A DNA stretch of 12,771 nt, from contig JAGCBE010000365.1 of the NCBI GenBank assembly GCA_017652345.1, positions 1-12,771 of the forward strand, given 5' to 3'. The DNA comes from Methanobrevibacter sp. (GTDB lineage Archaea > Methanobacteriota > Methanobacteria > Methanobacteriales > Methanobacteriaceae). A model generated the notes under the pieces. The model had not been told where the DNA came from. It was given only the letters and a program-made list of their open reading frames with translations, and did not search any database. The position numbers and the translations under genes are program-made. Below are positions 69 to 12,668 of the stretch, piece after piece. The first letter of the stretch is position 1. Each line of letters begins with the position of its first letter.

Positions 69-1976
69 TCACGCATTTACAACATTGTTCTTGTAGATGT
101 TTTCATACTTCTTCTGTATGCCCATTTCTTTCTCTTGAAAGACAATTAGAGTGCCACCTTTACATCTAAAGGCTCTCTGCACTTTGAATTTAGAAGAAAT
201 GATATTTATTTCATCATAAGGGATTTGATATTTATCTATCATTTCATCTCTTTCTTCATCAGATACAATTCTCGCCTCTTTAGTAAGCAAGTCATCCACC
301 TTTTGCTCTTTAAACTTATTGAAGTTAATTCCACCTGCTTTAATGGTAGTTTTACCAAAGGCTTCTGTTTTGTATCTCTTTGGGGCTGTAAATTGTGCTC
401 TTGAAAGTGTTTCTTCTAAAGCCCAACCACCTAAATAGTCAATGTGAGAGATTTGCTCGTTCCAAACTTTCATTGTTTGGTAGTCTTTAAGCACAAATAT
501 GCTATCTGTATCAAAGTATAGGATTTTCTCCCAACCAAAGAGCAAAGCAGTCTCTATGAGCATAACTCTTGAATAAGCAGGAATACAACTTCCAACAGGT
601 ATGTAGGTGTATTTTGCGTTAAGTTCTAACTCTTGAGGTGGTTTATCATAGATGTCGCTATCAATAATCCCCTCTTCATTGATGATATTCGCATAGACTT
701 GATTATGTGGTTTCTCCAATAACTTTCCATAACTGGAGTTGTTAAGCAATTTGTAATACAAAACATTAAAATCATCATTTTTCAAACGGGCTTTTATTCG
801 CTCATCATAGTTAACTGCATAATATTTACGCCAAGGAAGTGGCCTTTGATCATAAGCATAGCCATCTATATACTCAATTTGAAGATTTACATAAACCTTT
901 TTCATTGTCGGAATTTCAAAATTCCAAACAACTAACTCCCTATCTTGTGTAAAATCTTGACCAATTAAAGAAATTACAGAATGAAGTCTGACATCATCAT
1001 AAGAAATTCTTATACGACACGCAGAAATCTTGGCCATTGGAGGCTTGCCTGTGAAGTATTCTCCTTTGCCATAAGGGAACATTTTGAAGTAGGCTTGTGA
1101 TGGGTGCATTTGATGAGCGTCAATGTGCAAAATGTCGTGTTTAATGTCCTTAAATTGCCACCTACTTGGTGCATAAGTAATGCCTCCACCAACGCCTTTT
1201 CTTAAAAAATCAGTCTCTTTGTCATCAAGTTCGGGATACATTTTTCTAAATTCTTTGTATGGCTTTGTCGCTCTTGGGAAGCCTATTTTCATCATCTTTT
1301 TCATTGAATAGGTGGCCATAGAGACTGCATTGAAGAATTCTTTATCTCCTTTGTTTATCATTGCTTGCAGAATATCCACAATAATTCTCGTGTCATTAAA
1401 GCAATATTCTTTCTCTTCTTTAGTGACTATGTGATTATGTAAGCGATTAAGCGTGTAATCAATTTCGCCTTTTTGCGTAGGCAAATTAAAGGCTTTGGCT
1501 ACTTTCCCCAAGCCACCTCCAAAAATCTTCGCTAAATCCCTAAAATTGACTATTCCCGACTTTTTATGGAATTTAATCTGTGCACACCAAACTGATGAAC
1601 AGGTTTTTGTAGAAACGGAGTTGTAAACAAATTCATCATCTTTGTCTATTTTTTCCTTAAACTTAAAGCCCTTTTGAATAAGCACTGGAAGTATAAATGA
1701 CCATTCAAAAGAGAAGTTATAAACATAGACTGCTACATTTTTAATTGGGATGTTTTCGTTGTGATGTCTTACTGGAGTGCTTTCTCTTTCTAATCTCTCC
1801 AATAATTCATCAATTGAATATAAGTAGGAAGTAGGGTCATCAATTTTAGAAGTTTCATCAAGAAAACAACCAAGCCACATCCCTGTTGTCTTGTTTGCTA
1901 TGCTCTCGCTATCGTTGTGACTTTCAAGGTCAAAAGCGAAAACTTTGTGTTTCTTTCTTCCTATTCTATGTATCAT
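69..1976 (-). CDS. Protein-primed family B DNA polymerase (phi29 gp2-like)
   Basis: Replicates the linear phage genome from a protein primer, with 3'-5' proofreading and strand displacement. The product is 635 aa (phi29: about 575). Exonuclease motifs: Exo I FDLE (D16, E18), Exo II NFSFEW (N87-E91) and Exo III YCFND (Y191, D195). A GVGGG segment (261-265) sits where phi29 has its YxGG linker. Polymerase motifs: A is DAHQMHP (D286-P292), B is KLLNNSSYG (K409-G417), C is YFDTDS (catalytic D489, D491), and KxY is KRY (K533-Y535). Two deviations stand out: Exo II has Glu where phi29 has Asp66, and motif A has His291 where phi29 has the sugar-selecting Tyr254. The ATG at 1976 follows GGGAG at 6-nt spacing. 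It lies 34 nt downstream of the candidate terminal-protein gene, the usual pairing in protein-primed phages. The family call is firm. Confidence 0.97.
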   Translation of the reverse strand: MIHRIGRKKHKVFAFDLESHNDSESIANKTTGMWLGCFLDETSKIDDPTSYLYSIDELLERLERESTPVRHHNENIPIKNVAVYVYNFSFEWSFILPVLIQKGFKFKEKIDKDDEFVYNSVSTKTCSSVWCAQIKFHKKSGIVNFRDLAKIFGGGLGKVAKAFNLPTQKGEIDYTLNRLHNHIVTKEEKEYCFNDTRIIVDILQAMINKGDKEFFNAVSMATYSMKKMMKIGFPRATKPYKEFRKMYPELDDKETDFLRKGVGGGITYAPSRWQFKDIKHDILHIDAHQMHPSQAYFKMFPYGKGEYFTGKPPMAKISACRIRISYDDVRLHSVISLIGQDFTQDRELVVWNFEIPTMKKVYVNLQIEYIDGYAYDQRPLPWRKYYAVNYDERIKARLKNDDFNVLYYKLLNNSSYGKLLEKPHNQVYANIINEEGIIDSDIYDKPPQELELNAKYTYIPVGSCIPAYSRVMLIETALLFGWEKILYFDTDSIFVLKDYQTMKVWNEQISHIDYLGGWALEETLSRAQFTAPKRYKTEAFGKTTIKAGGINFNKFKEQKVDDLLTKEARIVSDEERDEMIDKYQIPYDEINIISSKFKVQRAFRCKGGTLIVFQEKEMGIQKKYENIYKNNVVNA

Positions 1977-2010: not shown

Positions 2011-2646
2011 TTATGAAATAATTGCTTTTATTCTTCTTGCACACTCTTGGCCTGTAATTGAGCCTTTTTCCCACTCATAAACTGCCTCATAGCAGTGAGA
2101 AATCCACTCTTCTCTGAATACCATCAATTTGTTTTCAATAAGCGATACAACTCGCTCCATATCTTCATCATACTCAATTGATAAGTCATTTTGAATTCTA
2201 TTGATTAAGTGAAGAACATTGTCAATGTATGCGTAGCCTTGTGAGTATCTGTAAGACTTATCTAACGACTGGAGTGTTGCCTCCGTTCCATAAGTTCTCA
2301 AATACCATCTGACATTTTTCATTGAAGCAGTGCCTCTTATGTCGGGATGTTTCTTTCTCCAACTTCTTTGAACCTTACGAAGAGCACGCTTGACTTCATC
2401 AGGCACTTCTTGGAGTTTCTTGGCTCTCGTTCCTTTAGGCGTTCTAATTCGTGCAAGTTGCACTTGTCTTGCCTGTGAAAGAGTTGCTCCAACCATCCTA
2501 CGAGCGAAAGCATTGCCAGTTTTTCCCGAGAAATGTTGGCCATCAATTTTTCTGATAATATAGCCACCATCTTGTCTCTTTGTATATTCAATTTTATGCG
2601 CTTGGCTTTCTAATTCTTTAATAATTTCTAATATGGTTAAATTCAT
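2011..2646 (-). CDS. Candidate genome terminal protein (replication primer)
   Basis: A 211-aa protein immediately upstream of the polymerase in the same unit, the place and approximate size of phi29 terminal protein (gp3, 266 aa). It would provide the hydroxyl that primes DNA synthesis and stay bound to the 5' genome ends. Residues 31-110 are strongly basic, with many Arg/Lys, as expected for DNA contact. A Tyr/Ser-rich stretch SYRYSQGYAY (131-140) precedes an amphipathic helical region and a C-terminal helical part (160-211). I see no sequence motif that proves the function or fixes the priming residue. I place the start at 2646 because GAGG lies 8 nt upstream. The in-frame ATGs at 2721 and 2712 have no ribosome binding site and fall within the predicted structured RNA. 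It could instead be another DNA-binding replication protein; the call rests on context. Confidence 0.55.
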   Translation of the reverse strand: MNLTILEIIKELESQAHKIEYTKRQDGGYIIRKIDGQHFSGKTGNAFARRMVGATLSQARQVQLARIRTPKGTRAKKLQEVPDEVKRALRKVQRSWRKKHPDIRGTASMKNVRWYLRTYGTEATLQSLDKSYRYSQGYAYIDNVLHLINRIQNDLSIEYDEDMERVVSLIENKLMVFREEWISHCYEAVYEWEKGSITGQECARRIKAIIS

Positions 2647-2664: not shown

Positions 2665-2798
2665 AAGTGGGAGATACTGCTTTAATAATTCGGCAGAGTA
2701 GTCTTGCGACATCCGAGCCATAGGTGGTGCAAACTAATGCCCTCTATCCACTCTACTATCTATGGCTTTTAATTAAAGTTGTTCAGTATCTCCGACTT
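2665..2798 (-). ncRNA. Candidate packaging RNA (pRNA-like, about 134 nt)
   Basis: Numbering from the predicted transcript start (nt 1 = 2798). AAGU 1-4 pairs with ACUU 131-134, then there is a C5/C130 mismatch. GGAGAUACUG 6-15 pairs perfectly with CAGUAUCUCC 120-129. AACAA 16-20 bulges on the 5' strand, and CUUUAAU 21-27 pairs with AUUAAAG 113-119. Two arms follow: a large one (AGCCAUAG 32-39 with CUAUGGCU 76-83, then a 17-nt 5' bulge and GGGCA 57-61 with UGC-A-CC 68-73) and a small one (CGG 84-86 with CCG 106-108, enclosing GUC-GCAA-GAC). AGAGUGG 45-51 in the large arm can pair with CUACUCU 98-104 in the small arm. phi29 pRNA has the same order of parts: a 5'/3' helix, a CCA bulge at 18-20, a three-way junction, a large arm with the right-hand loop at 45-48, and a small arm with the left-hand loop. 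The base pairs are seen in the sequence; the pRNA role is inferred. UUUUAUU after the closing helix could release the RNA. The alternative is a regulatory leader for the downstream replication genes. Confidence 0.65.
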
Positions 2799-2804
2799 AA
2801 TTTG

Positions 2805-2834
2805 ATTATAACAGTTAAAATGGAAGCGTGTCAT
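2805..2834 (-). promoter_or_regulatory. Strong sigmaA-type promoter for the structured RNA and the terminal-protein/polymerase genes
   Basis: Minus strand: -35 ATGACA (2834-2829, one mismatch to consensus), 18-nt spacer, extended -10 TGTTATAAT (2813-2805, perfect). The seventh base after the -10 is 2798, the first base of the closing helix of the structured RNA. The -35 lies inside the end of ssb and the -10 just past its stop. In phi29 a strong dedicated early promoter (A1) likewise drives pRNA. Read-through would also transcribe the terminal protein and polymerase. Confidence 0.75.
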
Positions 2835-3222
2835 CTTCTATTTCTTCATAAGTGAGTTCATCATCTTCACTAAACACAAGCTTTGGCTCTTCTTCCTGTT
2901 TGCGTTTCTCTGACAAGAATTCAACGCCACTAACGACTAATTTAATCATACTCGCTTTTGAACCATCTTTGCGAGTATATTTGGCCTGCTCCAAGTGACC
3001 CGAAAGACCAACTTTGTCTCCCTTTTTACAGACTTCATAAATCCTGTCTGCGACTTTATCCCAACTCTCGCACTCAATGAAGTATGTGTCTTTCACTCCA
3101 TCCGTTTTTCTTGTCCTGTTATCAAAGGCAAGGGCGAAGCGAACAACATTTTTATTAAATTTGTCAATTGGGAATTTTAATGGCTCGGAAGCAATGCGCC
3201 CTATGATATTAACGGAGTTCAT
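2815..3222 (-). CDS. ssb: Single-stranded DNA-binding protein, bacterial OB-fold type
   Basis: Coats single-stranded DNA displaced during strand-displacement replication. The product is 135 aa: N-terminal MNSVNIIGRI typical of bacterial SSBs, an OB fold over residues 1-105 (FIECESWDKVAD at 48-59, KKGDKVGLSGHLE at 67-78, the usual beta-strand landmarks), an acidic linker, and the tip DDTLPF (130-135), matching the bacterial DDDIPF tip that recruits partner proteins. phi29 gp5 is a different, smaller SSB without that tip as far as I know, so this gene looks acquired from a bacterial or other phage lineage. The frame extends upstream to 3306, but the family start is the ATG at 3222. The ribosome site there is weak (AAGAGA), and the gene overlaps the preceding Cys-rich gene by 14 nt, which suggests translational coupling. 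Confidence 0.95.
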   Translation of the reverse strand: MNSVNIIGRIASEPLKFPIDKFNKNVVRFALAFDNRTRKTDGVKDTYFIECESWDKVADRIYEVCKKGDKVGLSGHLEQAKYTRKDGSKASMIKLVVSGVEFLSEKRKQEEEPKLVFSEDDELTYEEIEDDTLPF

Positions 3223-3415
3223 ACGCTTTTCTCTTTTTTCTTCCTGCTTCAATGACTGCGACTTGAATAAAAGTTTTGAAGAAAGTGCATTTCTTATTCT
3301 CTGCATTTAATAATTTGCAAGTTCCATCTTCACAATACCAATTGCAATTGTGTCTCCTATCAACGCATTTAGGGTTCACAATTGGCTCTTTTCTTATTTT
3401 TGCTTTTTTACTCAT
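3209..3415 (-). CDS. Small Cys-rich protein, putative zinc-binding (68 aa)
   Basis: Function unknown. Five Cys (17, 24, 28, 33, 43) plus His22 lie in a compact N-terminal half, with NCNWYCEDGTC at 23-33 and KKCTFFK at 41-47, the kind of spacing seen in small zinc-knuckle or ribbon phage proteins. The C-terminus is basic (GRKKRK). The ATG at 3415 follows AAAGGA at about 8 nt and overlaps the stop of the ribbon-helix-helix gene as TAATG. A longer reading frame to 3487 exists but would run into that gene without its own binding site. It resembles the other two Cys-rich mini-genes of this operon in composition and in the C-x-FF ending of the Cys region. Metal binding is inferred from the Cys pattern only. 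Confidence 0.75.
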   Translation of the reverse strand: MSKKAKIRKEPIVNPKCVDRRHNCNWYCEDGTCKLLNAENKKCTFFKTFIQVAVIEAGRKKRKAYELR

Positions 3416-4532: not shown

Positions 4533-4748
4533 TTAGTCTTGATTATCAAGAAACTCTTTGATTACATCATCTAAAGTGGTTTGTCCTACGACATAGGCGT
4601 AATCAATTGATTTACAACCATTATAGATAGTGCAAGAGCAAAGTTGCATTTTCTTGCCATCTTCGGTAGAGAAGAACGAAATCTCCATTTTGAGAGTAAT
4701 TCCGTTGTCCTCTGCCCACTTGTCAAGTTTGTAATAGCCTTTTCCCAT
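4533..4748 (-). CDS. Hypothetical early protein (71 aa)
   Basis: Not recognised. Looks like a small mixed alpha/beta fold: a basic start, beta-strand-like stretches (LKMEISFFST at 19-28, LCSCTIYNG at 36-44, YAYVVGQ at 50-56) and a C-terminal acidic helix (TLDDVIKEFLDNQD). Cys at 37, 39 and 45. AGGAGG stands about 6 nt before the ATG, next to the stop of the upstream gene. The last codons carry a perfect 15-nt palindrome (4537-4551). Confidence 0.78.
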   Translation of the reverse strand: MGKGYYKLDKWAEDNGITLKMEISFFSTEDGKKMQLCSCTIYNGCKSIDYAYVVGQTTLDDVIKEFLDNQD

Positions 4749-4759
4749 TTTTATCCTCC

Positions 4760-5062
4760 TTAATAAATTCTTCTATATTGTTTAAGACTTTCAAAACGCT
4801 TAATTTCTTCTTTTACTCCACAGAAATAACCAACTCTTAAACCCCAAACATATCTATTATTTATATGAACATATTCATCAAATTTGCCTTTGGTCATCTT
4901 GCCTGATAAATAACTTTTGTATTCTCTTGTATTTTGGAATAAGACAACAACATCTGTCTTGTCATAAATGTTCTCAAATACTGCTTGAATTAAAGTGTTT
5001 TCGTTGCAATTATAAAGTTTTCTAACTGCTTGAATTGTTTTTTCTAATCTTTGTTGTGTCAT
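4760..5062 (-). CDS. Hypothetical first gene of the early operon (100 aa)
   Basis: Not recognised; no clear likeness to phi29 p6 or p4. A helical N-terminal part (3-35) leads into beta-like stretches (VVVLFQNT at 38-45, WGLRVGYFCG at 73-82) and a basic, Tyr-rich end. As the gene next to the early promoter it would be the first made and likely among the most abundant, the usual place for host-takeover or switch proteins. GGAG lies 8 nt upstream of the ATG, beside the palindrome at 5075-5090. Confidence 0.8.
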   Translation of the reverse strand: MTQQRLEKTIQAVRKLYNCNENTLIQAVFENIYDKTDVVVLFQNTREYKSYLSGKMTKGKFDEYVHINNRYVWGLRVGYFCGVKEEIKRFESLKQYRRIY

Positions 5063-5124: not shown

Positions 5125-5144
5125 AAAATTTGAAAAAATTTTTT
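5125..5144. other. Phased A-tracts (predicted curved DNA) between divergent promoters
   Basis: AAAATTT (5125-5131) and AAAAAATTTTTT (5133-5144) have centres about 10.5 bp apart, one helical turn, which predicts intrinsic bending. The tract overlaps the late -35 and spacer. phi29 uses curved A-tract DNA at its equivalent early/late control region for p4 binding; the parallel here is inference. Confidence 0.5.
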
Positions 5145-5157
5145 ATTTATTTATAAT
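5130..5157 (+). promoter_or_regulatory. Late operon promoter (rightward)
   Basis: TTGAAA (5130-5135), 16-nt spacer, perfect TATAAT (5152-5157). The seventh base after the -10 is 5164, the A of the ATPase start codon, so the mRNA would begin at or next to the ATG. The -35 is 6 nt from the early -35, so the two promoters are back to back. Confidence 0.65.
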
Positions 5158-5163
5158 AAGTGT

Positions 5164-6234
5164 ATGGAATTAGATAATTTGCATTATAGTTTCAGAGCAA
5201 TAGATGGCCACGACAAGCCTTATAATTTTGTCATTTCTGCTCGTGAGCCGGGCAAGTCCACAATGTTTATGCTTACAAAACACTACTTTGCTTGGAAAAA
5301 GGATTTCGCTCCTTTGCTTTATCTTGTGAGAAATATCGTTGAAATTACAGAGGGCTTAATCACTACAATTCAAGATGTAATTCTTAATAAATTTACAGAT
5401 GATAAAGTCTTATTTGAATATACAAAAGCGAGTGTGCGTGATGGAATTGTTGACTTAAAGATAAATGGCAAACTCTTTTTGCGTATTGAAGCGCTCTCTA
5501 TCTCATTAAGAAAAATCAAGCAAACAATTCTTCACAATGTTCGTTGCATTGAATTTGATGAATTCATTATCAACCCAAGACAAAATGAAAGATATTTGCC
5601 AGATGAGGCTATGAAATTCAAAGAACTTTACACAACCAATAAAAGAGATAGATTTGACCAAAGTAAACCCTTAAAGGCTTATTTTCTTGGAAATCCTTAT
5701 TCATTGTATAATCCATATTTTGTGTGGCTTGGAATTGTTCCATCAAAATTGATATTTGGCAAAATGTTCGTGGGAGAGACTTTTGTTGTTGATTATTACA
5801 AAATGCTTGATGAACTCAAAGCAAAGATTTTGAAAGAAAATCCTGCTTATCAATTTGATCCTGAATATTGTGCTTATGCGTTGGAGGGAAAAGCAGTTCT
5901 TGATAAAAACATCAAACTTGCTAAACTTCCACAAAATTATCATCTTCAATTTGTTTTTAAGAGTGAAAACAAGTTTATTGGCGTATTCCAAAATAACTAT
6001 TGGATAGACCACGCAGACATTTACTTTTGCCAGTTCTTAACACAAAAGGACATTTCTTCAAGAAGAGTTGCTTATTGCTTTGACTTTAAAGAGTTAATTG
6101 CAGGCACTGAACTTTTATCAAAAGAAGAGCGAAATAAGTTCAATAAATTCAAAAATGCTATGCGTAGGAGACTTGTTGCTTTCCAGTCTATTGACTGCTA
6201 TTATCTTATAGAGGAGATTTATTACAACTTATGA
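5164..6234 (+). CDS. DNA packaging (encapsidation) ATPase, phi29 gp16-like
   Basis: Motor that pumps DNA into the prohead; in phi29 it sits on a ring of pRNA at the portal. The product is 356 aa (phi29: 332). The N-terminal YNFVISAREPGKS matches phi29 LNFVIGARGIGKS. The Walker A segment is SAREPGKS (25-32, Lys31), with Ser where the first Gly usually is. Walker B is CIEFDEF (D132, E133). Arg161 aligns with the phi29 arginine finger Arg146, counted from the shared YxPxE motif. LGNPYSLYNPYF (175-186) matches the phi29 sensor region SNAVSVVNPYF. The C-terminal part is less conserved. The ATG at 5164 is the only one upstream of Walker A, an in-frame stop lies at 5131, and there is no ribosome binding site, so a leaderless mRNA is likely. 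It overlaps the next gene as ATGA. Confidence 0.95.
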   Translation: MELDNLHYSFRAIDGHDKPYNFVISAREPGKSTMFMLTKHYFAWKKDFAPLLYLVRNIVEITEGLITTIQDVILNKFTDDKVLFEYTKASVRDGIVDLKINGKLFLRIEALSISLRKIKQTILHNVRCIEFDEFIINPRQNERYLPDEAMKFKELYTTNKRDRFDQSKPLKAYFLGNPYSLYNPYFVWLGIVPSKLIFGKMFVGETFVVDYYKMLDELKAKILKENPAYQFDPEYCAYALEGKAVLDKNIKLAKLPQNYHLQFVFKSENKFIGVFQNNYWIDHADIYFCQFLTQKDISSRRVAYCFDFKELIAGTELLSKEERNKFNKFKNAMRRRLVAFQSIDCYYLIEEIYYNL

Positions 6235-8566: not shown

Positions 8567-9502
8567 ATGTCTAAAAAATACAATTCGTTAGCAAGTTGGA
8601 AAACACAAGGATGTTTTGAGAGAAGTCTTGCTTATCAATTCTATATCCAAAAGTTTTACAACTTATTTATGGGAGCATATAAATTCAATGGAATTACTCC
8701 AAGACAACAAGAATACATTTTGCGTAAACTATGGGCAGAGGGGAAAATTGCCTCTTTCATTGTTGAGGGCACAAAACTTGAAGAGGGAGAAGTTCCGACA
8801 AATGTCAACCAATATCCAAACGGACTAATTGCTTTCTGTCCTTTTGCTCCATTTACTTTTGATATTTATGACTGGCCTATTCAAGTTAATTTAATCAATG
8901 TGCGTGGTGCGAAGTTTATTCCAACCACTCCACAAGTTGTTAATAAGGATGTTGTTATTGGGTTTGCTCAACGCTCTAAAAAGTCAGTGCGTTCAGTCGT
9001 GGAGTTTTATGTTCAGAAGATAGTGGACACTGAAATGACAATTCGCCAACAACTTAAATCTCATAAAGTTCCATGGCTTATTGCAACTACTCCCGAAAAT
9101 GAAAGCAAGATGAAAGCATTGTTCGACAAGATTATGACAGATGATGATGTTCTTTATCTTTCTGCAAGTGAAATAGAGGCTCTCAAAGTTCTTGCCACTG
9201 GCAATGACTATAAAATTGATAAACTCTACTCATACAAGCAAGCACTGGAAAATGAACTTCTCACTTATCTTGGCATTGACAACATAGGCATTATGGAGAA
9301 GAAAGAGCACTTGATTACTGATGAAGTAAACTCAAACAACGACTTAATCAATGACCATAGCGACAATTTTATTGCTTGTTTAGAAAACTTCTGTGAAGCA
9401 ATAAGAAATGTATTTGGCTATCAAATATCAGTTGAAGCAACTTCAAGCCCTGTAAGTGCTAAAAATGAAGAAAACGAAAGCGAGGATGAAGAAGATGAAT
9501 AA
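8567..9502 (+). CDS. Portal / upper collar (connector) protein, phi29 gp10-like
   Basis: Dodecameric portal at the unique vertex: the gateway for DNA entry and exit and the docking site for the packaging ATPase and pRNA. The product is 311 aa (phi29: 309). The strongest match is near the C-terminus: YLGIDNIGIMEKKEHLITDE and the following VNSN, against [23 protein letters not shown] in phi29. The N-terminus shares the layout of a Tyr/Phe-rich helix (LAYQFYIQKFYNLF) after a basic start, then the INPSFLEK-like ITPRQQEYIL. It ends in an acidic tail (EENESEDEEDE, 301-311). AAAGGAG lies 9 nt upstream of the ATG. The end overlaps the lower collar start by 8 nt. Confidence 0.95.
   Translation: MSKKYNSLASWKTQGCFERSLAYQFYIQKFYNLFMGAYKFNGITPRQQEYILRKLWAEGKIASFIVEGTKLEEGEVPTNVNQYPNGLIAFCPFAPFTFDIYDWPIQVNLINVRGAKFIPTTPQVVNKDVVIGFAQRSKKSVRSVVEFYVQKIVDTEMTIRQQLKSHKVPWLIATTPENESKMKALFDKIMTDDDVLYLSASEIEALKVLATGNDYKIDKLYSYKQALENELLTYLGIDNIGIMEKKEHLITDEVNSNNDLINDHSDNFIACLENFCEAIRNVFGYQISVEATSSPVSAKNEENESEDEEDE
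9482..9485 (+). promoter_or_regulatory. Ribosome binding site fixing the lower collar start
   Basis: GAGG lies 9 nt before the ATG at 9495, inside the acidic tail codons of the portal gene. The earlier in-frame ATG at 9456 has no such site and would add a Lys-rich 13-residue start (MLKMKKTKARMKK) that simply mirrors the portal's Glu/Asp codons in another frame, so 9495 is preferred. Confidence 0.65.
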
Positions 9503-12011: not shown

Positions 12012-12668
12012 ATGAAAAGAATGATAGATAGTGAAACAATTGAAAAATTGGATGAACTACTTAAAAAGGTCAATATTGTAAATGGCCTTGTTTCTTTTGA
12101 TGAAAGCATTGTAGTTGATGGAGTTCCACTTTATACAGATGAAGATAGTGGAGGCATTAAAAGGCTTGCTCTAAATGGTTTAGTTTCTAACGGAAATGTT
12201 GAAGTCAATTCAGATTTGACTGCTACAACATTACGACAGACTGAATCAAATTGGGAATTAGATATTGGCGAGTTGGTTTTAGCCAACAAATCTGGTATAA
12301 CTGCACATTCTTCTTTTAGTAAATTTCAACTTATCGGAAATTTGTTGATCGTGGCAATTAACGGATATTTAGAGAATACAACTGCAGAAGCAATCGCAAA
12401 TGTTGGCTTTAGTGAAATCCAATTTACACTTCCAGAACCTATTGCTAAAAAAATTATTGATGTTGATGGAAAAAGTTTAGATGAACTTGGAAGTTCTGTT
12501 GTAACTGGAGACACATTCATTCTTGATTATGCTTCAATTAGTTTTTTTAGATTAGTTAATGACACCCCAAAAGATGGAGGAAGATTATTAATTAATGCTT
12601 CTTTGAGTTCATTCCCTGCAGGTGCAAGAAGAGACTTTTCTGGAAGATTAATTTTAAGTATTTTGTAA
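12012..12668 (+). CDS. Putative head fibre or decoration protein, last late gene (218 aa)
   Basis: Not recognised by sequence. A short N-terminal helix (DSETIEKLDELLKKV, 6-20) is followed by a mostly beta protein with many alternating hydrophobic/Ser/Thr/Asn strands (for example LLIVAINGYLEN around 113-124 and GRLILSIL at the end). No signal peptide or membrane segment. A helix plus beta domain suits a trimeric fibre or decoration protein. In phi29 the head fibre gene 8.5 directly follows the capsid gene, as here, which is the basis for the guess. A receptor-binding role is the main alternative. AGGAGG stands 8 nt before the ATG, and an intrinsic terminator follows. Confidence 0.5.
   Translation: MKRMIDSETIEKLDELLKKVNIVNGLVSFDESIVVDGVPLYTDEDSGGIKRLALNGLVSNGNVEVNSDLTATTLRQTESNWELDIGELVLANKSGITAHSSFSKFQLIGNLLIVAINGYLENTTAEAIANVGFSEIQFTLPEPIAKKIIDVDGKSLDELGSSVVTGDTFILDYASISFFRLVNDTPKDGGRLLINASLSSFPAGARRDFSGRLILSIL

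What the first reader, a model, noticed from the sequence alone, without database searches (positions are those of the whole stretch)
2665..2798. Candidate packaging RNA (pRNA) embedded between ssb and the terminal-protein gene
Direct: the minus strand carries four nested perfect complementarities (4, 10, 7 and 8 bp). They form a long 5'/3' helix with a 5-nt bulge on the 5' strand at nt 16-20, then a three-way junction with a large and a small arm. Known: phi29 pRNA has this same order (closing helix, CCA bulge at 18-20, large CE arm with a 5'-side loop, small D arm) and is essential for the gp16 ATPase motor. This window has a clear gp16-like ATPase and portal. Inference: this is the phage's pRNA, relocated from the genome end (its place in phi29), with a different primary sequence. 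Sequence searches would miss it because pRNAs conserve shape, not bases.
Basis: partly seen in the sequence, partly recalled or inferred. Interest (0 to 1): 0.95.

Follow-up and report, generated by a model that had tools for sequence, protein, structure and literature searches.

The report
Packaging-motor RNA in a tiny phage
A 12.8-kb phi29-like phage carries, between its single-strand-binding and likely terminal-protein genes, an apparently non-coding segment predicted to fold into the three-way-junction shape of phi29's DNA-packaging RNA; three distant relatives have the same predicted shape upstream of the matching gene or at the head of its operon, so such motor RNAs likely extend beyond the Bacillus phages where they are known.

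Summary
Observation confirmed; interpretation supported, function inferred. On the minus strand at 2665-2798 the stated complementarities fold into a closing helix with a 5-nt 5'-side bulge, a large arm and a small arm. The stretch looks non-coding: TP homologues start at 2646, and two relatives match it in a frame that is closed in the window. The strand's only 11/12 extended -10 promoter lies 6 nt upstream. Three diverged relatives each carry one such fold, upstream of TP or at the head of its operon. A signature (two large 5'-side bulges in the large arm), defined after seeing the folds, occurs once in each of 4 genomes and in 0 of 48 shuffled genomes. A phi29-type descriptor hits only the pRNA in the phi29 and B103 stretches (a looser version, missed phi29's). 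Not shown: expression, prohead binding, column-level covariation; loop-loop pairing is no better than chance; in two genomes the opposite strand folds more stably. Best reading: a relocated pRNA subfamily, not matched by Rfam's model. Five literature searches listed no description.

The parts
2665..2798 (-). candidate packaging RNA (predicted three-way junction); core 2670-2793
2784..2793 (-). outer closing helix 5' strand GGAGAUACUG, pairs with 2670-2679; further AAGU 2795-2798 pairs with ACUU 2665-2668
2779..2783 (-). 5-nt 5'-side bulge AACAA (place of the phi29 CCA bulge)
   Evidence: with the phi29 control in the same call
2772..2778 (-). inner closing helix CUUUAAU, pairs with 2680-2686
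2716..2767 (-). large arm (phi29 CE position): stem 2760-2767/2716-2723, 8-nt 5' bulge 2752-2759, stem 2748-2751/2724-2727, second 5' bulge 2743-2747, weak apical hairpin
2694..2715 (-). small arm (phi29 D position); CUAC at 2698-2701 could pair with GUAG at 2753-2756 of the large-arm bulge if the inner 3-bp hairpin opens
   Evidence: pairing not better than chance
2805..2834 (-). promoter-like ATGACA (2834-2829), 18 nt, TATAAT (2810-2805) with TG before; predicted start about 2798
2011..2646 (-). probable terminal-protein gene (label by position and homologues; no family hit); ORF part 2647-2721 is a likely spurious extension
2815..3306 (-). single-strand DNA-binding protein gene
69..1976 (-). 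type B DNA polymerase gene of phi29-like kind
5164..6234 (+). gp16-like packaging ATPase gene, expected partner of the RNA
   Evidence: 7jqq, profile E 1.6e-15
8567..9502 (+). gp10-like portal (connector) gene, expected partner of the RNA

Best explanation
The minus-strand segment 2665-2798 likely encodes this phage's packaging RNA, a short RNA that would bridge the portal and the gp16-like ATPase during DNA packaging, as phi29 pRNA does. It is predicted to be transcribed from its own extended -10 promoter starting near 2798, inside the early operon, and to fold into a closing helix with a 5'-side bulge and two unequal arms. Copies would then assemble into a ring on the portal, perhaps through contacts between large-arm and small-arm loops, and hold the ATPase while it pumps the genome in. 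Shown directly: the complementarities, the promoter-like sequence, the recurrence of the same predicted fold in three relatives, and the ATPase and portal genes. Inferred: non-coding status (from homologues), transcription, ring assembly and motor function.
For: Fold and energy. Double-5'-bulge signature: exactly one hit in each of 4 of 4 genomes, 0 in 48 shuffled genomes; 0 of 10 further loci, phi29 and B103 among them, so it marks this clade. phi29-derived descriptor: window, L002 and L004 one hit each, at this locus; 1 hit in 48 shuffled genomes. Controls: in the 6-kb phi29 and B103 stretches it hits only the pRNA. Location: upstream of TP in window, L002, L003; head of the operon in L004, before a PAPS-reductase homologue. 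All four lie on the early-gene strand. Promoter: the only site of at least 11/12 on that strand, with TG; shuffled strands give 0.255 such sites, 0.005 with TG; L004 has TATAAT 7 nt before its RNA. P0134 and P0146 N-extensions back-translate onto the RNA at 54.0 and 51.4 bits, 0 of 300 shuffles each. ATPase family profile matches gp16 structure 7jqq over positions 7-341. L002 has 107-nt terminal repeats, so a whole genome was scanned there.
Against: No expression or binding data. Only four DNA sequences; column-level covariation not shown. Loop pairing: longest runs 4 (window, after opening a 3-bp hairpin), 4 (L003), 3 (L004), 2 (L002), reached by 855, 552, 1958 and 1984 of 2000 letter shuffles; phi29's own 4 bp by 829, so the test has little power. 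The opposite strand folds more stably in window and L002, less so in L003 and L004, so the strand rests on arm order, bulge side, promoter and gene strand. L003 lacks the 5'-side closing-helix bulge, and a second L003 stretch (4711-4832) also meets the two arm rules. Of P0134 and P0146 only proteins were seen; in P0146 two outer small-arm pairs are not kept on back-translation (read). Rfam's pRNA model does not match. The signature was defined after seeing the folds. A looser descriptor missed phi29's pRNA and gave one other hit there. 15 of 22 loci gave no hit, the window itself among them because of the ORF mask.
Confidence: 0.82

Rival explanations
1. A cis-acting leader that controls expression of the terminal-protein and polymerase genes (attenuator, translational switch or mRNA stabiliser).
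For: In 3 of 4 genomes it lies directly upstream of TP; a promoter-like site precedes it; T-rich stretches follow the closing helix.
Against: In L004 the RNA is followed by a PAPS-reductase homologue, not TP, yet keeps the fold, though it could still be an operon leader. The fold has the pRNA layout and ends before the ribosome-binding sequence at 2654-2659 (read). No other signature hit that could serve the gp16-like ATPase was found in the four genomes.
Confidence: 0.11
2. A trans-acting phage RNA with another role (host takeover, replication, protein sequestration) that only resembles pRNA in outline.
For: Own promoter-like site; stretches of the loops kept in P0134 and P0146; loop pairing of pRNA type not established.
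Against: Bulge sides, arm order and arm sizes agree with phi29 and B103 pRNA.
Confidence: 0.05
3. Chance fold in an AT-rich spacer.
For: Energy z-scores of this size occur elsewhere in the window.
Against: Same signature in 4 of 4 genomes at early-operon positions and in 0 of 48 shuffles; sequence kept in P0134 and P0146 outside the window's TP frame.
Confidence: 0.02

Closest known systems
phi29 pRNA (Rfam RF00044; EU771092 201-318, minus strand)
   Same: Closing helix with a 5'-side bulge, three-way junction, large first arm with a 5'-side loop, small second arm, on the early-gene strand, in a genome with gp16-like ATPase and gp10-like portal.
   Different: No sequence match; locus between ssb and TP instead of near the left genome end; bulge of 5 nt rather than CCA; two large 5' bulges in the large arm rather than one; loop pairing not established.
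B103 pRNA (NC_004165 174-290; place inferred here, the record does not annotate it; it shares CUGAUUGAGUUCAGCCCACA with phi29's)
   Same: Same layout; also below the Rfam cut-off; only descriptor hit in that stretch.
   Different: Genome-end position; one large 5' bulge in the large arm; UAUC/GAUA loop pair.
Packaging RNA annotated in Actinomyces phage Av-1 (NC_009643 16295-16402)
   Same: A pRNA claim in a non-Bacillus phage whose early genes run ssb, TP, polymerase.
   Different: Near the genome end; the minimum-energy fold of the annotated stretch has no phi29-like topology on either strand, and no descriptor hit was found in that genome.

Membership tests
phage packaging RNA (pRNA) | 5' and 3' ends pair in a long helix interrupted by a small 5'-side bulge | tested here: met
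   met in window, L004 and L002; L003 has the helix without the 5' bulge
[quoted passage not shown]
   4 of 4 genomes, 0 of 48 shuffles for the double-bulge form
[quoted passage not shown]
   runs of 4, 4, 3 and 2 in window, L003, L004, L002; none better than letter shuffles; phi29's own loops are not either
phage packaging RNA (pRNA) | encoded with a gp16-type ATPase and gp10-type connector | tested here: met
phage packaging RNA (pRNA) | non-coding locus with its own promoter | tested here: met
   at sequence level only:
phage packaging RNA (pRNA) | bound to proheads and required for packaging | not testable with these tools
   needs RNA sequencing of proheads or a packaging assay
Rfam RF00044 Phage_pRNA | score above the family's gathering cut-off | tested here: not met
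   B103's pRNA also fails it, so the model is narrow
TP N-terminal coding sequence | protein-type conservation over 2647-2721 in the TP frame | tested here: not met

The most novel reading that the evidence does not exclude
RNA-geared packaging motors are an old and general property of protein-primed phi29-like phages, not a Bacillus-phage peculiarity: the RNA gene moves freely (genome end, ssb-TP spacer, operon leader, late spacer in an Eggerthella phage) and its sequence turns over completely while the fold and its ATPase partner stay.
Probability: 0.5. Interest if true: 0.85.

Novelty: new variant of a known kind. Interest (0 to 1): 0.73.

Why it matters
A 2024 review calls pRNA a feature unique to phi29 and related Bacillus phages (PMC11476376, passages), and the names in the tables of a 2025 structure-based search are, as far as I can recall, all Bacillus-type phages (PMC12670572, Results). 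A pRNA in an uncultured clade of 12-13 kb phages (587 related ATPases at E up to 0.001, 120 listed at 47-99% identity) would show that RNA-dependent motors are wider and evolve by relocation and sequence turnover. It would supply natural variants for the open questions of ring stoichiometry and of how RNA, portal and ATPase co-evolve, and new three-way-junction scaffolds for RNA nanotechnology.

Tried and rejected
More DNA relatives were sought with 8 viral-contig scans, 1 genome-contig scan, ATPase searches of 200, 395, 335 and 190 genomes (the only hit was L003's own genome) and tblastn of ATPase and polymerase in annotated phages and of polymerase in plasmids (28, 86 and 2 records, all under 60% identity). 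Usable near relatives were L002, L003 and L004 (L008 and L018 are L002 again); L005, L006, L009 and L017 are more distant. R-scape-type statistics were therefore out of reach. BLAST with the RNA stretch gave 6 records at E 2 or worse. Energy z-scores alone were rejected as a criterion. Sequence-only alignments misplace stems (0 shared pairs), so covariation is not claimed. L005 and L006 non-coding stretches were folded without a convincing pRNA. Back-translation of P0141 and P0154 was uninformative (194 and 67 of 300 shuffles as good). A search for further extended TP proteins returned only P0146 itself. A ribosomal marker search meant to place G001 found nothing. Loop pairing was tested and found without power.

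Full report
What the window is. The 12,771-base window looks like a near-complete phi29-like phage; no terminal repeat was found at its ends. Minus strand: type B DNA polymerase (69-1976), a probable terminal protein (TP, 2011-2646; label by position and homologues, no family hit) and an SSB (2815-3306). Plus strand: gp16-like ATPase (5164-6234), tail knob, portal (8567-9502) and a phi29-type capsid protein. The ATPase family profile (alignment A5) matches gp16-type structures 7jqq (E 1.6e-15, positions 7-341) and 5hd9; the portal matches 7pv4, 1h5w and two others. 587 related ATPases exist in the protein collection (120 listed), but the DNA collections held few relatives: L002, L003 and L004 (ATPase identity 36, 38 and 45%).

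The observation. The region folds better than all of 200 shuffles (2660-2800) and than 995 of 1000 (2662-2798). Energy alone is not exceptional in this genome, and the plus strand of the same place does better in the sliding scan. The plus strand of 2670-2793 folds at -40.2 against -35.0 kcal/mol, as a three-way junction with the arms reversed. The opposite strand is also the more stable one in L002 but the less stable one in L003 and L004. The strand is therefore argued from arm order, bulge side, promoter and gene direction, not from energy.

Not coding. The ORF that covers the RNA's 3' half (2647-2721) is a likely gene-calling artefact. Of the 114 TP homologues, one (P0121) has the window's own sequence; of the other 113, 101 are 209-218 aa, 6 shorter and 6 longer. 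Seventeen of them, aligned, start at or within a few columns of window residue 26, that is at 2646. The six longer ones were read: P0134, P0141, P0146 and P0154 have N-extensions unrelated to the window's TP-frame extension, P0227 and P0234 have none. P0134 and P0146, back-translated, match the window RNA from 2746 downward at 54.0 and 51.4 bits (0 of 300 shuffles each), but in a frame that in the window begins after a stop, ends at a stop and has no ATG, GTG or TTG. The sequence is thus kept where the window cannot translate it in that frame. Only the proteins of these two relatives were seen. The best-kept blocks lie in the apical part of the large arm and the centre of the small arm. P0141 and P0154 gave no significant match.

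Promoter. A scan of both strands gave 50 promoter-like sites against 44.1 expected; two reach 11 of 12 matches: one just before the ATPase gene (5130-5157) and one, with an extended -10 TG, at 2834-2805 on the minus strand. The second puts the start near 2798, the RNA's first paired base, 6 nt after the -10 box. Shuffled minus strands give 0.255 sites of at least 11/12 and 0.005 with TG (200 shuffles). L004 has TATAAT 7 nt before its RNA; L002 has TAAAAT 3 nt before; L003 only TCTAAT 10 nt before.

Relatives. L003 (162 nt between SSB and TP) and L002 (188 nt before TP; the gene upstream of that matched no family clearly) were folded because of synteny. L004 came out of the descriptor scan, at 53-197, ahead of a PAPS-reductase homologue that precedes TP and polymerase. 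All four have z-scores from -3.15 to -4.64, reached by 5, 0, 3 and 0 of 1000 shuffles for window, L004, L002, L003. Large-arm patterns (bp / 5' bulge / bp / 5' bulge / bp) for window, L002, L003, L004 are 8/8/4/5(3)/4, 7/7/4/7/4, 7/7/5/5/3 and 8/9/5/6/3+1. This double-bulge signature occurs exactly once in each of the four genomes, here, and in 0 of 48 block-shuffled genomes (12 per genome); it is absent from 10 further loci, phi29 and B103 stretches included. It was defined after the folds were seen. By energy per base alone, among 4, 3, 2 and 3 loose candidates in window, L002, L003 and L004, this RNA ranks first in window and L003, third in L002 and second in L004; the ones above it lie inside coding sequence. 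A descriptor taken from phi29 and B103 (closing-helix 5' bulge, one large 5' bulge in the first arm, abutting arms) hits window, L002 and L004 once each, at this locus; L003 fails the closing-helix bulge, and there a second stretch meets the two arm rules as well; the 48 shuffles give one full hit and six that meet the arm rules. L002 has 107-nt terminal inverted repeats and so is complete.

Controls. In a scan of 22 loci limited to stretches with at most 35% overlap with ORFs of at least 90 aa, the hits in the 6-kb phi29 and B103 stretches were their pRNAs only, with loop pairs AACC/GGUU and UAUC/GAUA. The phi29 place agrees with Rfam; the B103 place is inferred from shared sequence. L002, L003 and L004 gave only this RNA; L006 a weak one (two overlapping hits); L013 one other; 15 loci gave none, the window among them because the spurious TP extension masks it. 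An earlier, looser version that needs 7 unbroken pairs found B103's pRNA but missed phi29's and gave one other hit there. Rfam's pRNA model does not match the window, but it does not reach its cut-off on B103 either.

What is weak. Loop-loop pairing, a pRNA hallmark, has runs of 4 bp in the window (if a 3-bp hairpin opens), 4 in L003 (CGAC/GUCG), 3 in L004 and 2 in L002; 855, 552, 1958 and 1984 of 2000 letter shuffles do as well, and phi29's own pair is reached by 829, so the test cannot decide. Column-wise covariation was not shown: on a sequence-only alignment L002 and L003 share no pair in register. Nothing here shows that the RNA is made.

Literature. A 2024 review calls pRNA a unique feature of phi29 and related Bacillus phages (PMC11476376, passages). 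A 2025 study reports 12 new pRNAs found by structure search; the phage names in its tables are, by my recall, Bacillus-type (PMC12670572, outline, Results and Discussion read). The C. perfringens phage paper mentions pRNA in describing the encapsidation protein (PMC3362512, passages). The rumen phage paper describes phi29-like Ruminococcus phages (PMC5723332, passages). Av-1's record annotates a packaging RNA. Searches, in openly licensed PMC papers only, listed nothing on a pRNA in this clade or between ssb and TP; only the listings were seen for the other papers.

Verdict. A structured, apparently non-coding RNA is very likely. That it is the packaging RNA is the best-supported reading, by layout, by the motor genes beside it and by lack of a rival candidate with the same signature; its function is inferred. 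After checking, the confidence was lowered from 0.83 to 0.82 and the general reading from 0.55 to 0.5, because loop pairing proved uninformative and the opposite strand folds better in two of the four genomes.

Noticed in passing
L013 (Eggerthella phage LE1-1, MW679025.1) 12540-12636, + strand: Unannotated stretch that folds like a phi29-type pRNA: 9 bp, CAA 5' bulge, 6 bp, large arm with GGGCA 5' bulge, small arm with loop AACAGCCCC; GGGC/GCCC can pair (93 of 2000 letter shuffles as good); 2 of 1000 shuffles fold as well; GTGACA-17-TATGAT just upstream (read). Found only, not by the stricter scans, and a coding stretch of that genome had lower energy per base.
   Followed up: partly
L004 220-1128: A PAPS-reductase homologue sits between the RNA and the TP gene in this relative's early operon.
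   Followed up: no
L012 (Av-1, NC_009643) 16295-16402: The stretch annotated as packaging RNA shows no phi29-like topology in its minimum-energy fold on either strand.
   Followed up: no
L010 and L011 against Rfam RF00044: Rfam's pRNA model finds phi29 but not B103 at its gathering cut-off (100 bits), so Rfam annotation may under-report pRNAs.
   Followed up: no
window 2752-2759 (-) and the matching bulge in L002, L003, L004: The first large-arm bulge looks alike in sequence: AUAGUAGA, AUACACA, AUGCAGA, AAUAUAGAU, each followed by a G-containing strand; possible contact motif, not tested.
   Followed up: no
Host unknown; binning errors possible.
   Followed up: partly
window 5130-5157 (+): The other 11/12 promoter-like site lies just before the ATPase gene, possibly a late promoter.
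   Followed up: no
L002 1-107 and 12890-12996: 107-nt perfect inverted terminal repeats, far longer than phi29's 6 bases.
   Followed up: no
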